This document shows positions 2,674 through 41,590 of a stretch of 42,471 bases of DNA, one piece after another. The position numbers were made by a program, and so were the translations under genes. Within the stretch, counting starts at the first letter, position 1. Each line of letters starts with the position of its first letter. The stretch comes from Chitinophagaceae bacterium (GTDB lineage Bacteria; Bacteroidota; Bacteroidia; Chitinophagales; Chitinophagaceae): NCBI GenBank assembly GCA_027486695.1, contig JAIXOS010000302.1:1-42471 (forward strand), in the 5' to 3' direction. The notes below the pieces were generated by a model, which saw only the letters and a list, made by a program, of their open reading frames with translations, was not told the DNA's origin and did no database searches.

Positions 2674-2760
2674 AACGGCTACACGGTAGCCTTTTTTCTT
2701 GATGAGCCAGGGGAAAGTACTACTATTAAGCTAAAGTGGCGTTGGCACCATTCAACAGTT
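2674..2760 (+). repeat. Interspersed ~87-bp repeat, copy A
   Basis: aacggctacacggtagcc...gagccaggggaaagtactactattaagctaaagtggcgttggcaccattcaacagtt; gap-free match to 24404-24490 (about 73/87 identical by eye). Contains the hairpin GGCTAC-acg-GTAGCC. Confidence 0.9.
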
Positions 2761-2968
2761 ACAGCACCTATTGAACTTACTCCAAACAAACAATCCGTAG
2801 CAAATAAGGCTCTTACATTTGCCCAATCGAGACAAAAAGAACCATATGCACTACGGATGTAATTTGTGTAATAAAGTAAACTAATACAACTTCAAAACGC
2901 TATCTATCTTGTAAGCGCCACCTAAACAGTTGTTACAGGCCAAAATATTCCTGCGTATTTATTGATTG

Positions 2969-5542: not shown

Positions 5543-5573
5543 TGTTCCGAACCGAAACCGTGTTACGTGAAAC
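5543..5573 (+). repeat. 31-bp direct repeat, copy 1 (parS-like half site)
   Basis: TGTTCCGAACCGAAACCGTGTTACGTGAAAC; 28/31 identical to 5605-5635. Confidence 0.85.
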
Positions 5574-5604: not shown

Positions 5605-5635
5605 TGTTCCCGCCCGAAACCGTGTTACGTGAAAC
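5605..5635 (+). repeat. 31-bp direct repeat, copy 2 (parS-like half site)
   Basis: TGTTCCCGCCCGAAACCGTGTTACGTGAAAC, followed by A, giving CGTGTTACGTGAAACA (13/16 match to canonical parS TGTTTCACGTGAAACA). Confidence 0.85.
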
Positions 5636-23393: not shown

Positions 23394-24401
23394 ATGAACA
23401 TTGACAAAGCAAAAGCAAACTTAATTACCAACGGCTTTTTAGACATTGAGTTAGATCCAACACTCGACTTGTTTGCAGGAATAGAAAAATTAAAAAAAGA
23501 AAAAAATGCCATCGTATTGGCACACTACTATCAAGAACCCGATATACAGGATGTAGCAGATTATATTGGCGATAGTTTGGGATTGGCGCAAAAAGCGCAG
23601 CAAACCAATGCCGACATCATCGTTTTTGCCGGTGTTCACTTTATGGCCGAAACCGCTAAAATTCTCAATCCTCAAAAAAAGGTATTGCTGCCCGATTTAA
23701 AGGCCGGTTGCTCTTTGGCCGACTCAGCCCCCGCCGCACCGTTTAAAGCGTTTAAAGACAAACATCCGGACCATTTAGTGGTATCCTACATCAATTGCAC
23801 TTCCGAAATAAAAGCATTGAGCGATATTATTTGTACTAGCAGCAATGCCGAAAAAATAATTGAGTCTATTCCGGCCACTCAACCCATCATTTTTGCGCCG
23901 GATAAAAACCTAGGAGCTTACCTCAATAAAAAAACCGGTAGAAACATGGTTTTGTGGAATGGCGCTTGCATGGTACACGAAATATTTAGTGCCGAAAAAA
24001 TTACCAAACTCAAAGTAAGACACCCCGAAGCATTGGTGATTGCACATCCTGAGTGCGAAGAAGTGGTATTACAAATGGCCGATTTTATAGGCAGTACTAC
24101 CCAATTGCTCAAATATGCAGCTGCTAGCAAAGCACAAACCTTTATCGTTGTTACCGAAACCGGAATTTTGCACCAAATGCAAAAAGATGCACCCACCAAA
24201 ACATTTATTCCGGCACCGCCCAACAACAATTGCGCTTGCAATGATTGTGGGTACATGAAACTCAATACGCTCGAAAAACTATATATTTCAATGAAATATG
24301 AGCTACCTGAAATTACCATGAACGAAACATTGCGCTTAGCTGCCAAAAAACCTATTGAAAGAATGCTAGAAATTAGCAAAGCAGCCGGACTGTTGGGATA
24401 A
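23394..24401 (+). CDS. nadA: Quinolinate synthase NadA
   Basis: 335 aa; [110 protein letters not shown]. Confidence 0.97.
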
Positions 24402-24403
24402 TA

Positions 24404-24490
24404 AACGGCTACACGGTAGCCTATTTTGGGTATGAGCCAAGGGCTATTACTACTATTTGGCTGTAGTGGCGTTGGCACCGTTCAACAGTT
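24404..24490 (+). repeat. Interspersed ~87-bp repeat, copy B
   Basis: aacggctacacggtagcctattttgggtatgagccaagggctattactactatttggctgtagtggcgttggcaccgttcaacagtt; same length as copy A, no gaps. Confidence 0.9.
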
Positions 24491-24527
24491 AACAACCTGT
24501 ATCAACAGTTTTTCTTCCATTAATTGT

Positions 24528-24569
24528 AAAACAAAGCCCCTTGAATGTTGGTACAAGGGGCTTTGTTTT
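24528..24569. terminator. Bidirectional hairpin terminator
   Basis: AAAACAAAGCCCCTTG - loop - CAAGGGGCTTTGTTTT. Confidence 0.88.
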
Positions 24570-24592
24570 ATAAATAACTATTTTTAGCTGTA

Positions 24593-25462
24593 TTAAAAAT
24601 TGCTAAATCGAATACCTACAGCGTAAGGGTATTGTTCTATTTGTGTTTTGTTGTCGTGTAAACTATTAAAACTGTAACTGCCATATAGCCTAATAGGTCC
24701 TAGACCCAATTCAGCAATTCCGGCTAAGCGCCAAGGACTTAAGTTCAAGTTACCTCGGTATTTTTGTTTGCCCCTTTCGCTGCTGATTTGTTTGTTATAG
24801 CTTGATAAAAGGTATCCTGCACTTACGCCCGCGCTTATGTTGAATCCTTTTTTCTTGTTAGGTGTGGCATTAAAATTGAGCATTAATGGCACAGTTAAGT
24901 AGCTTGTGTACAATTTGTTTTTTGAAAAATGAATGCTATCGGTAAATACAAAAGGTTCCGGATTGTTTCGATAACTAATATTTTTTTCGTATCTGAAGTT
25001 ATACATTTCAAGGCCGGCACCATATTTCAAATTCACAACATGCTTAATCAAGTTCATTTTTTGCATAAACACCCAAATATTCACATTGCTCGATTTTCCG
25101 GTATTCAGATTAAAGCTGTTTTGATTAATAGGAGTACTATTGTTAATAACAGGCGTATAACTATTGGTAGCTAGGTTAGCATAGTTGGTTTGATCGTTGT
25201 AATTGGCAAATCCCAAATCAAAAATCCACCAATTGGTTTGCACATTCGACTTTTTTGGTGTGTTTGTTTTATTGATAATGATGTTGATGGCATGATTGCT
25301 ATTGTCTTTATCAGTCGATTTTTTGGAGGTATTTTTATCTTTTATAATAATAAAATTTCCCACTTTTATGGTGTCAGTGGTGGATTTATTGGTAGTATCG
25401 GTTTGTGCCAATCCGGTAAATACTGCGGCTAGTGCCACTGAAAAAAATAACAACTTTTTCAT
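24593..25462 (-). CDS. Outer-membrane beta-barrel-like hypothetical protein (likely start at 25462; ORF track start 25543)
   Basis: Signal peptide MKKLLFFSVALAAVFTGLAQ, C-terminal ending YAVGIRFSNF with aromatic terminal residue; porin-family-like pattern. Confidence 0.7.
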   Translation of the reverse strand: MKKLLFFSVALAAVFTGLAQTDTTNKSTTDTIKVGNFIIIKDKNTSKKSTDKDNSNHAINIIINKTNTPKKSNVQTNWWIFDLGFANYNDQTNYANLATNSYTPVINNSTPINQNSFNLNTGKSSNVNIWVFMQKMNLIKHVVNLKYGAGLEMYNFRYEKNISYRNNPEPFVFTDSIHFSKNKLYTSYLTVPLMLNFNATPNKKKGFNISAGVSAGYLLSSYNKQISSERGKQKYRGNLNLSPWRLAGIAELGLGPIRLYGSYSFNSLHDNKTQIEQYPYAVGIRFSNF

Positions 25463-26648: not shown

Positions 26649-27134
26649 TTACAAAACGTTATCGGCACTCACCAATACATTGCGCAGGGTAAGCCTAGCA
26701 CGATGTAAGTATACTTTTACCTGACTTTCGGTTAAATTCATGATTTGACCAATTTCTTCATAATTATAGCCTTCATAATCTTTCAGCATGACCAAACTTT
26801 TTTGTGTTTCGTTGAGTTGATTTAGGGCATGCATCAATGTTTTTTTGGTATCGTTGCTAGTTTGGTAACCAATTTTTGAGTTTTCGTCGAACGATTCGCT
26901 ATAGGTAATACGACTATTTTTTCTAATATGGTCTATCATTTGGTTGTAGGCCACGGTAAATAAATAACTTTTACTTTTTACATTATCCACTGTGGTTCTG
27001 TTGCGCCACAATTTTTCGAAAGCTGTTTGTACAATATCTCTAGCATCTTCTTCGTGTTTTAAATTTTTAACGATAAAGCGATACACATTATCCGCGTATA
27101 AATCAACACATGTATTGTATTCTTTTTCAGTCAT
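26649..27134 (-). CDS. ECF-type RNA polymerase sigma-70 factor
   Basis: 161 aa; YRFIVKNLKHEEDARDIVQTAFEKLWRNR (region 2) and LKDYEGYNYEEIGQIMNLTESQVKVYLHRARLTLRNVL (region 4). Confidence 0.95.
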   Translation of the reverse strand: MTEKEYNTCVDLYADNVYRFIVKNLKHEEDARDIVQTAFEKLWRNRTTVDNVKSKSYLFTVAYNQMIDHIRKNSRITYSESFDENSKIGYQTSNDTKKTLMHALNQLNETQKSLVMLKDYEGYNYEEIGQIMNLTESQVKVYLHRARLTLRNVLVSADNVL

Positions 27135-27298
27135 AAACAGCGGCAGAATGTAAATGTGACAATGTTTGGTATAAGTGATACGTTTTAGTAAATGAAAAGT
27201 TACATTTTTTATGGAATACTTTTTCTAAAAAGGGTGAGGCTTGATTTAGTTATTCATTTGCTGTTAGTTGAATCTAGATTGTTGAACAAAGCACTGTT

Positions 27299-27386
27299 TG
27301 TTGAACGGTGCCAACGCCACTGCAGCCAAATAGTAGTAATAGCCTATGGTCCATAATCATATTAGGGGGCTAAGGTGTTGCCGTTT
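27299..27386 (-). repeat. Interspersed ~87-bp repeat, copy C (inverted)
   Basis: Reverse complement aaacggcaacaccttagcc...ggctattactactatttggctgcagtggcgttggcaccgttcaacaa matches copy B strongly over its 3' half. Confidence 0.85.
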
Positions 27387-27545: not shown

Positions 27546-30020
27546 ATGAAATTATTGGCTTTACTGTGCATGCTAAGTAGTTGTTATTTGGCAACAGCAC
27601 AAAATGCAAATACAAGTAATGGTGTAGATACCTTATTACACAAATATTTACCCGCAATACGCACTACCGAAAAAATAGTGATAGATGGTGATATTAGCGA
27701 TGCTGCTTGGAGAAAAGCGGCAGTAGCCGATCAATTTGTAGAGTGGCGTCCATCGTTTGGACAACCGGAAAACCCGCTCAATAAAACCGAGATTCGTATT
27801 TTGTACAACAATGAAGCAATTTATATTAGTGGCTTTTGTCACGAACAAAGCAACGATAGCATTGCCAAAGAATTGGTGGGCAGAGATATGATTGGCGTAA
27901 ACGATTTTGTAGGTATAATGTTTGATACGTATAACGATAAAATCAATGGATTTGGCTATTACATAACCCCTCTTGGCGAACAATTTGATGCCAAATATTC
28001 CAATAGTGGCGAAGATCCCAATTGGAATAGTGTGTATGAAAGTGCTGCCAAAATAGTTTCAGGCGGTTGGGTTTTTGAAATGAAAATTCCCTATGCGGCC
28101 ATTCGATTTAGTAAAAAAAACGTGCAGGAATGGGGTATTAATATTACACGCAAACGCAGCAAAATTGGTAAACAATACATGTGGAATCCGGTAAATCCGG
28201 CTGTAAATGGTTTTTTTACACAATTTGGTTTGTGGACAGGCATTGCCAATATAAAGCCACCAATACGTTTATCTTTTTCTCCTTATTTTTCATTGTATGG
28301 CAATAGTTCGCCTTCAGTTACCAACAATCAGCAGTTATTTAGTAGTAGCGTTAGCGGTGGAATGGATGTAAAATATGGCATTAACCAAGCCATGACACTC
28401 GATATGACGTTGATTCCGGATTTTGGTCAGGTACAAAGCGATAACCGTGTGTTGAACTTAACGCCCTTTGAAGTAAAATACAACGAAAACAGGAGTTTTT
28501 TTACAGAAGGTACCGAATTGTTTGGCAAGGGCAACTTGTTTTATAGCAGGCGTATTGGTGGAGAACCCATTCATTATGGCGATGTAAATAACCAAACAAC
28601 GTCTACCGAAAAAATTCTGAGCAACCCAAGTGAAAGTAAGCTCATAAATGCTACAAAATTAAGTGGTCGTACAGCTAAAGGATTGGGTATTGGAGTGTTT
28701 AATGCTATTACAAAAGCACAGCAAGCCGTGATTGAAAATGAAAGTACCAAACAAAAACGACTGTACGAAACAGAGCCACTCACCAATTATAATATATTTG
28801 TTTTAGATCAAACGTTAAAGCACAATTCGAGCGTTTCTTTCATTAATACCAATGTGCTGCGCAATGGAACCGATTATGATGCTAACGTATCGGCTGCTTT
28901 GTGGGATTTATACGATAAGAAAAATAATTACAATTTTGGCGGAAAAGTAGCTACAAGTATGCTACGTGGCGTAAATGGTGATGGTAAACACGAAAATGGC
29001 TATTCGCACAGTATTTATTTTGGTAAATCTAGCGGTAGATTCAATTTTAATGTGTACCAAGATTTGGTAGACCATCGCTACAATCAAAATGATATGGGCT
29101 ACCTTACCAACAACAATTTTTTTGATCATGGTATTTGGGCAGCTTATCGTTGGTTAAAGCCAAGCAAATGGTATAACCGCTTTACCATTAATGGCAATAT
29201 GTGGTATTCCATGCGTTATTTTCCCCGTTCCTATCAAAATTTTGGTATCAATATCAATACCAATGGACAGTTAAAAAATTTATGGTTTGTAGGTGGTAGT
29301 GTTAATTACAATGCATCTGAGCAAGATTTTTATGAACCACGTATACAAGGCTATGTATTTAAACGACCACAAAATGTAAATGGAGGTATTTGGATAGAAA
29401 CCAATAGTGCCAATAAATATTCCGCTTCGGCACAGTATTATGTTACCGCAATGTCACAGTGGGGTAGTTTGGCGCACAATATTGGTTTTACCAATCAATA
29501 CAGGTTTAATACCAAATTTACATTAAGTACCAATAGTACCCTCGACTTTCGACACAACAATGTAGGTTTTGCTACTATTTACAATACCAATGATGTGATA
29601 GATAGCATTGTATTTGCCAAACGGCACAGAACAACCATCGAAAATATTGTAAACCTCAAGTATAATTTTACCAATAAAATGGGGCTCAATTGTAGAGTAA
29701 GGCATTATTGGAGTGTGGTAAATAACCAATCGTATTTTAAATTACAATCGTCCGGTAAGCTTGAAAACATAGCTGACATTAATAGAGATGTAAACCAAAA
29801 TTTGAACTTATTTAATGTTGATTTCGTGTACACTTGGCAGTTTGCGTTGGGTAGTTTTGTAAATGTAGTATGGAAAAATGCCATTTTTGGTTTTGACAGC
29901 AATATAAGCAATACCTATTTTAATAATTTGGGCAATGTATTGGCACAGCCACAAAGCAATAGTGTAAGTATTCGGGTTATTTACTTTTTAGACTATTTGA
30001 ATTTACACAAAAAAAGCTAG
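27546..30020 (+). CDS. DUF5916 family protein with carbohydrate-binding family 9-like N-terminal domain (824 aa)
   Basis: Signal peptide; IDGDISDAAWRKAAVADQFVEWRPSFGQPENPLNKTEIRILYNNEAIYISGFCHE; SRRIGG and beta-barrel-like C-terminus. Confidence 0.85.
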   Translation: MKLLALLCMLSSCYLATAQNANTSNGVDTLLHKYLPAIRTTEKIVIDGDISDAAWRKAAVADQFVEWRPSFGQPENPLNKTEIRILYNNEAIYISGFCHEQSNDSIAKELVGRDMIGVNDFVGIMFDTYNDKINGFGYYITPLGEQFDAKYSNSGEDPNWNSVYESAAKIVSGGWVFEMKIPYAAIRFSKKNVQEWGINITRKRSKIGKQYMWNPVNPAVNGFFTQFGLWTGIANIKPPIRLSFSPYFSLYGNSSPSVTNNQQLFSSSVSGGMDVKYGINQAMTLDMTLIPDFGQVQSDNRVLNLTPFEVKYNENRSFFTEGTELFGKGNLFYSRRIGGEPIHYGDVNNQTTSTEKILSNPSESKLINATKLSGRTAKGLGIGVFNAITKAQQAVIENESTKQKRLYETEPLTNYNIFVLDQTLKHNSSVSFINTNVLRNGTDYDANVSAALWDLYDKKNNYNFGGKVATSMLRGVNGDGKHENGYSHSIYFGKSSGRFNFNVYQDLVDHRYNQNDMGYLTNNNFFDHGIWAAYRWLKPSKWYNRFTINGNMWYSMRYFPRSYQNFGININTNGQLKNLWFVGGSVNYNASEQDFYEPRIQGYVFKRPQNVNGGIWIETNSANKYSASAQYYVTAMSQWGSLAHNIGFTNQYRFNTKFTLSTNSTLDFRHNNVGFATIYNTNDVIDSIVFAKRHRTTIENIVNLKYNFTNKMGLNCRVRHYWSVVNNQSYFKLQSSGKLENIADINRDVNQNLNLFNVDFVYTWQFALGSFVNVVWKNAIFGFDSNISNTYFNNLGNVLAQPQSNSVSIRVIYFLDYLNLHKKS

Positions 30021-40285: not shown

Positions 40286-41401
40286 TTAGGATGCTTGTAA
40301 ATTGGTTTTGAGTTCTAGTAAAAACGAACGAAAATGGTTGAGCGATTGGATGAGCGTCATTTCCTTATCGGCTACAGATTTATTGGCTTTTAAATATTCT
40401 TTAGCACCCTCTATGCTGTATTTTTTGTTGCGCAGCAAATGGTGAATAAGTTGTAGGTTTTTAATGTCTTCTACCCTGAAAAGGCGATCACCTTTGCGTG
40501 TTTTGCGTGGTTGCAAAATATCGAATTCGTTTTCCCAAAACCGAATTTGCGAATTGTTTACTTTGAACCATCCGGCTACTTCTGAAATGCTGTAGTACAA
40601 TTTTTTTTCCAAAATGTCGATAGAGGGCACGTCAATCAGGTCGGCAGTGGCATCCATTTCTTTGAACGATTTACGGCCACGTTTGCCAAGTGGATTCTGC
40701 GTTGACGCTTCTGACTTTTCAGTTGATTCGTTAAGCAACACAGGTGAAGGCGTTATTTCGGAAAGGTCAATAGGGTCTGCAGAATTTAACCAATTGTCGG
40801 AGGATGTGGTGGTGGTGTGTTGCAAAGATGCCTCCTCTACAGCAACCGCTTCTGTGGACAAATCGGGGGTACTATCGGGTTCGATTGCGGTGGTGGCAGC
40901 TTTTATTTTTACTGCAATTGTGTTATTACTGTACACAATGGTAGAGGCCGATTCGGTATTTGCCGCAGTGTTTGAAGTGGTGGTTTCGGCCAATAAGTCT
41001 GCTGCTGTTGCATGCTCTTCTTCGCTGTTGCCCAATACATCAAGGGTAGTAGCAGTAGTTTGCGCTTCCACAAATGTTACAGCAGTATTTTCCAACAAGG
41101 TATCGGGTATATCTGCTATCGGATTTGTAGCTGCAAGCGGTTCGTTGATGGTAGAAGGCAAGTTATTTGTTGCAGGCGCTTCTTCGCTGTTGCTCATTAC
41201 ATCATGGGTAGCAGTAGCTGGGGCTTCCGCAAATGTTACAGCAGTAGTTTCCAACGATGTATCTGCTATTGGGTTTGTAGCTGCAAGCGGTTCGTTGGGG
41301 GTAGTAGGCAAATTGTTTGTTGCAGGCACTGCTTTGGCCTTTTTAGCAGGTGGTTGCGGCAAAATGGGATTGCCAAATAAATCTAATTGTACCGTATCCA
41401 T
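40286..41401 (-). CDS. MerR-family transcriptional regulator with long low-complexity N-terminal extension (start probably 41401)
   Basis: C-terminal MerR HTH: KKLYYSISEVAGWFKVNNSQIRFWENEFDILQPRKTRKGDRLFRVEDIKNLQLIHHLLRNKKYSIEGAKEYL; N-terminus starts MDTVQLDLFGNPILPQPPAKK. Confidence 0.88.
   Translation of the reverse strand: MDTVQLDLFGNPILPQPPAKKAKAVPATNNLPTTPNEPLAATNPIADTSLETTAVTFAEAPATATHDVMSNSEEAPATNNLPSTINEPLAATNPIADIPDTLLENTAVTFVEAQTTATTLDVLGNSEEEHATAADLLAETTTSNTAANTESASTIVYSNNTIAVKIKAATTAIEPDSTPDLSTEAVAVEEASLQHTTTTSSDNWLNSADPIDLSEITPSPVLLNESTEKSEASTQNPLGKRGRKSFKEMDATADLIDVPSIDILEKKLYYSISEVAGWFKVNNSQIRFWENEFDILQPRKTRKGDRLFRVEDIKNLQLIHHLLRNKKYSIEGAKEYLKANKSVADKEMTLIQSLNHFRSFLLELKTNLQAS
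41017..41327. repeat. Two-copy intragenic tandem repeat in the MerR-like gene (41017-41177 and 41179-41327)
   Basis: Both copies start cttcttcgctgttgc and end tttgttgcaggc; encode ATNNLPxTxNEPLAATNPIADxxxxxETTAVTFxEAxxTAT. Confidence 0.85.
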
Positions 41402-41590
41402 ACCGTAAAAATAACAAACACTTACGTGTGCTGATGCAAATGGTTTAAATGGTGGAAAAAAGTATGCCTTTTGTAGTACCATGAGTCAAAAATCGGGTAA
41501 ATGGCACTTCCAAATTTAAACAATCCTTTACCAATTGGGTCAACAAAAAATGGTAATTTCACCCATTCAAACATACTCAAAACGATTGTT

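What the first reader, a model, noticed from the sequence alone, without database searches (positions are those of the whole stretch)
2674..2760. Three-copy interspersed ~87-bp repeat with hairpin potential (2674-2760, 24404-24490, 27299-27386)
Copies A and B are the same length with no indels and about 84% identity by eye; copy C is inverted and best conserved over GGCTATTACTACTATTTGGCTGyAGTGGCGTTGGCACCGTTCAACA. The elements are intergenic and contain inverted repeats (GGCTAC-acg-GTAGCC; AGCCAA...TTGGCT). Copy B starts 2 bp after the nadA stop codon. Could be a REP/MITE-like mobile element, an RNA structure or a protein-binding site.
Basis: seen in the sequence. Interest (0 to 1): 0.7.

Follow-up and report, generated by a model that had tools for sequence, protein, structure and literature searches.

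The report
Dispersed intergenic repeat with invariant core
A ~100-base DNA element sits between genes about 120 times in this Chitinophagaceae genome, and an asymmetric ~17-base core stays unchanged even when the same copy is compared between species. This suggests an unidentified protein reads it, so it is probably more than a decaying junk repeat.

Summary
The repeat is real and much larger than the three copies reported. The genome holds 122 copies of the core GGCGTTGGCACCRTTCA (<=1 mismatch; reversed control 0). The element is ~100 nt, not 87: a covarying 5' hairpin (GGCTACAYGGTAGCC, often followed by a T-run), an arm R1 (GGYCGGTACTACTATTNRGC), the core, and a weaker second copy of the arm, R2, 44 nt downstream of R1. 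Copies are intergenic and lie in all orientations. Twelve congeners have none; other Chitinophagaceae genera, and a few of their phages, carry the same core with different flanks.

It is not a RAYT-mobilised REP on the evidence here: none of 30 Y1-transposase loci is flanked by the element, several copy-rich genomes lack the transposase, and the core is not a palindrome. No RNA structure is conserved beyond the 5' hairpin. The core is under purifying selection in place: G169 and G289 share five orthologous copies with 1/85 core differences against 61/341 in the rest of the element (p=9e-6).

Best reading: a lineage-amplified intergenic cis-element whose core binds an unidentified sequence-specific protein, fused in this genome to an intrinsic terminator. 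Partner and mode of spread are unknown.

The parts
2674..2777 (+). Copy A of the element (hairpin, R1, core, degenerate R2), between a 208-aa ORF of unknown family (+, ends 2626) and mnmG/gidA (-, ends 2969)
2677..2691 (+). Copy A 5' hairpin GGCTACACGGTAGCC followed by a T-run
2738..2754 (+). Copy A core GGCGTTGGCACCATTCA
24404..24507 (+). Copy B; begins 2 nt after the nadA stop codon (nadA 23394-24401 +); next gene convergent (OMP beta-barrel, 24593-25462 -)
24407..24421 (+). Copy B 5' hairpin GGCTACACGGTAGCC plus TATTTT, scored as terminator-like
24441..24463 (+). Copy B arm R1, GGGCTATTACTACTATTTGGCTG
24468..24484 (+). Copy B core GGCGTTGGCACCGTTCA
27279..27386 (-). Copy C, inverted, 5' hairpin decayed (GGCAACACCTTAGCC); between divergent genes (ECF sigma factor 26649-27134 - and DUF5916 protein 27546-30020 +)
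27302..27318 (-). Copy C core GGCGTTGGCACCGTTCA

Best explanation
A dispersed intergenic cis-element that amplified in this lineage by unknown means and is then inherited vertically. Its asymmetric ~17-bp core GGCGWTRGCACCRTTCA is most likely the binding site of an unidentified sequence-specific DNA-binding protein, with looser contacts in two direct-repeat arms (CTATTNRGC, 44 bp apart) on either side. In this genome the unit also carries a hairpin with a T-run that should act as an intrinsic terminator for the gene on its left, so each copy would be a 'stop plus docking site' placed just after genes. Shown: copy number, anatomy, intergenic location, hairpin covariation, and core conservation in place between species. 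Inferred: protein binding, terminator activity, any insulating or roadblock role.
For: 122 core sites, reversed control 0. Core positions 1-10 identical in 101/101 copies while flanks vary. Check not biased by searching with the core: hairpin-anchored copies not already found through the core still carry GGCGTTGGCACC, with one decayed exception, L318. The same core with different flanks occurs in other genera of the family. Orthologous retention: the nuoG-nuoH gap in four species and five shared loci of G169 and G289; core 1/85 differences against 61/341 in the rest of the element, Fisher p=9e-6. No conserved base pairing outside the 5' hairpin, so it is the sequence that is conserved. The hairpin covaries at 5 of 6 pairs; 79/101 copies have it intact, 54 of these with at least 5 T in the next 8 nt. 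The left gene more often ends than starts at the hairpin side (56 vs 35, p=0.035). Adjacent gene functions look unrelated, which argues against an ordinary regulon.
Against: No binding protein was identified. Twelve congeners lack the core, so it is not essential. Orientation relative to genes is mixed, and the left-gene bias reverses in other genomes (35 vs 55). Hairpins are not shared across genera. The nuo-operon positions fit poorly with a terminator role. In G169/G289 the arms are no better conserved than the surroundings.
Confidence: 0.5

Rival explanations
1. A MITE- or REP-like non-autonomous mobile element moved in trans by an unidentified transposase; the core is the transposase recognition site and copies have no host function.
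For: Lineage-specific amplification from 0 to 122 copies; insertion close to gene ends; presence on phages.
Against: Core conserved in place between species after flanks diverged. No recurrent protein beside copies. No Y1 transposase flanked by the element, and copy-rich genomes without one. No terminal inverted repeats noted; target duplications could not be tested for lack of empty sites.
Confidence: 0.27
2. An RNA element (processing site, small RNA or UTR motif) acting after transcription.
For: Preference for ends of genes; position between genes of operons (nuo); a Mu-like phage contig with four copies all in one orientation just upstream of gene starts.
Against: No consensus structure beyond the 5' hairpin; fold z-scores -0.2 to -1.2; no Rfam match; both orientations relative to genes.
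Confidence: 0.13
3. Sequence kept by biased DNA exchange (molecular drive, as for DNA uptake sequences) and not by a cellular role.
For: Invariant short core with looser flanks, both orientations, intergenic, genus-specific dialects at two core positions.
Against: Only about 1 copy per 32 kb and hardly any inside genes; known uptake sequences are far denser (own knowledge).
Confidence: 0.07

Closest known systems
REP elements / BIMEs with RAYT transposases
   Same: Short, ~100-copy, intergenic, often near gene ends, hairpin present, lineage-specific
   Different: Core is asymmetric and not a palindrome; no RAYT flanked by copies; not the GTAG- or CGTC-tagged palindromes of PMC3733652
MITEs and other non-autonomous repeats of ~100 bp
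   Same: Size, dispersal, intergenic location
   Different: No terminal inverted repeats noted, no autonomous partner found, core conserved in place
Mycobacteriophage stoperators (PMC9283540)
   Same: Asymmetric invariant site, many copies across a genome; four copies in one phage contig share one orientation
   Different: Mostly chromosomal here, orientation mixed, ~100-nt composite, no repressor known
Intrinsic terminators
   Same: GC hairpin plus T-run on the 5' side
   Different: The invariant part is downstream of the hairpin and present in genera without it

Membership tests
REP/RAYT system | Many short intergenic copies in one genome | tested here: met
   122 sites, all or nearly all between genes
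REP/RAYT system | RAYT (Y1) transposase gene flanked by the repeat | tested here: not met
   0 of 30 Y1 loci flanked by it (one chance-like partial match without arms, L257); own genome's single hit not flanked
REP/RAYT system | Repeat unit is a palindrome with a GTAG or CGTC tag | tested here: not met
   Conserved unit is a non-palindromic core; the hairpin is genome-specific
MITE | Terminal inverted repeats and target-site duplication | tested here: inconclusive
   No inverted repeat at the ends noted in the alignment; empty sites unavailable, congeners too diverged
MITE | Related autonomous transposon | tested here: inconclusive
   No recurrent protein beside copies; assemblies incomplete
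Structured RNA family | Compensatory changes across a conserved fold | tested here: not met
   Only the 5' hairpin covaries; core and arms do not pair; no Rfam match
Protein-binding site under selection | Invariant sequence independent of structure, retained at orthologous places | tested here: met
Protein-binding site under selection | A protein that binds it | not testable with these tools
   Needs pull-down or ChIP

The most novel reading that the evidence does not exclude
A new class of orientation-independent chromosomal docking site of the Chitinophagaceae, read by an unknown protein that blocks or insulates transcription between genes, carried also by their transposable phages, and in this lineage fused to a mobile terminator.
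Probability: 0.18. Interest if true: 0.75.

Novelty: new variant of a known kind. Interest (0 to 1): 0.5.

Why it matters
Most dispersed intergenic repeats are set aside as REP or MITE debris. Here the core is shown to be kept in place while its surroundings diverge, so each copy probably does something. The family gives a defined 17-bp bait and natural variants (W and R positions) with which to look for an unknown DNA-binding protein, and a clear contrast of genomes with 0 and 122 copies. No matching sequence was found in the papers searched, which cover open-access text only.

Tried and rejected
RAYT mobilisation: rejected. Known RNA family: none (one search gave only sub-threshold matches, most of them on the separate terminator hairpin near 24521-24577). 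Coding origin of the core (reads ALAPFN in one frame): rejected by inspection, because third positions are invariant and the frame holds stops. Sigma-54 promoter: the TGGCAC box fits but the -12 GC does not. Pairing GTT..AAC within the core: no correlation across genera by inspection. Recurrent neighbour protein: none. Common regulon: neighbours include mnmA, ahcY, mgtE, aroB, pyk, histidine ammonia-lyase and a glycosyltransferase, named by inspection of the sequences. Empty-site comparison downstream of nadA: congeners too diverged. (order-wide pattern) used a wrong spacer, found only 2 of the own genome's copies, and is not used as evidence. INPHARED phages and plasmids: no convincing match.

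Full report
Observation. The window lies in a 3.87-Mb, 502-contig genome (G000, contig C404). Copies A and B match 84% over 88 nt and copy C is inverted. BLAST of copy B gives 40 scored matches. The 22-mer GTGGCGTTGGCACCRTTCAACA gives 95 matches with up to 3 mismatches and 0 for the reversed control; the 17-nt core gives 122 with up to 1 mismatch and 0 control.

Anatomy. From 101 distinct copies aligned on the core, the element runs from about -64 to +39. It has a 5' hairpin GGCTACAYGGTAGCC, often with a T-run; then TATGAGCCAAGGGCYGGTACTACTATTNRGC (R1); a short linker; the core GGCGTTGGCACCRTTCAAC; and a degenerate second arm ending CTATTNRGCAA (R2), 44 nt from R1. In some copies R2 is almost the same as R1 (for example L125, L129, L133, L134). 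The hairpin is intact in 79 of 101 copies, 54 of them with at least 5 T in the next 8 nt. It covaries at 5 of 6 pairs with 90.7% of cells paired; the proposed AGCC/GGCT pairing has 67% of cells paired and double changes at one pair only. RNAalifold finds no other supported structure, and single copies fold no better than shuffles.

Location. Nearly all copies lie between genes. Neighbour orientations (left, right) were (+,-) 25, (+,+) 30, (-,-) 20 and (-,+) 13 in the deduplicated set; a first count with another ORF rule gave 30, 26, 20 and 15. The left gene ends at the hairpin more often than it starts there (56 vs 35, p=0.035). In other genomes the bias is the other way (35 vs 55), so no single orientation rule holds. 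Copy B starts 2 nt after the nadA stop codon.

Distribution. Twelve congeners have no site. In 396 family genomes, 117 have at least one core match with up to 1 mismatch, many singletons probably chance; genera g22, g114, g127, g130, g46 and g28 have several copies each. A scan of 85,462 species genomes with the left arm plus core found 21 stretches, all titled Chitinophagaceae, Taibaiella (a Chitinophagaceae genus) or uncultured Bacteroidetes. Across genera the core is GGCGWTRGCACCRTTCA, with TTTT-GGTCCMAGC upstream and CTATTNAGC in both arms. A Mu-like phage contig (transposase phrog_310 and transposition protein phrog_296) carries four copies in one orientation, just upstream of gene starts. 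In G039 recent copies sit beside rRNA operons, near the 5S end, judged by reading the sequence.

Selection on the core. Two tests reduce the bias of having searched with the core. First, searching with the hairpin alone and fetching those not already known: every complete element so found keeps GGCGTTGGCACC except one, L318, which is decayed; the remaining hairpin matches have no element around them, and one is cut by a contig end. Second, in two species with nuo proteins about 99% identical, G169 and G289, five loci are orthologous by neighbours. G169 had six sites and G289 five in the same scan, so losses would have been visible. The core differs at 1 of 85 positions, the rest of the element at 61 of 341 (p=9e-6). 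The nuoG-nuoH gap keeps the element in the same orientation in four species.

What it is not. The own genome has one weak Y1 transposase hit, not flanked by the element. Among 27 genomes, copy-bearing G384, G273 and G376 have none and copy-free congeners have several; none of 30 fetched Y1 loci is flanked. No protein recurs beside copies in a way that suggests a transposase. No Rfam family matches.

Reading. An invariant, asymmetric, unstructured core kept in place, in either orientation, beside unrelated genes, points to a DNA-binding protein without a regulon in the usual sense. The hairpin and T-run point to termination of the gene to the left in this genome. Both functions are inferred. 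How the element reached 122 copies is unknown.

Noticed in passing
window 5543-5573 and 5605-5635: Two 31-nt direct repeats (90% identical, 62 bp apart) containing CCGTGTTACGTGAAAC, between two minus-strand genes; possibly an operator-like site.
   Followed up: no
window 41006-41334: Imperfect ~150-160-bp spaced repeats (85-88% identity) overlapping the ORF at 40286-41482.
   Followed up: no
window about 24540-24570: A separate strong hairpin (AAAGCCCCTTG...CAAGGGGCTTT) between the convergent genes downstream of copy B, so nadA is followed by two terminator-like structures.
   Followed up: partly
own genome, contigs with more than one copy: Neighbouring copies on one contig are more often inverted than direct (13 vs 4, p=0.049; pairs counted by hand, test).
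   Followed up: partly
L170, L149, L189, L289, L190, L280, L292, L300: The element occurs in the nuo operon at apparently three different gaps in several genera, which seems more than expected for so few loci.
   Followed up: partly
L212, L213, L220 (IMGVR_UViG_3300029953_001734): Mu-like phage contig with four copies; R2 overlaps the 3' ends of genes and the R1 side lies close to the next start codon.
   Followed up: partly
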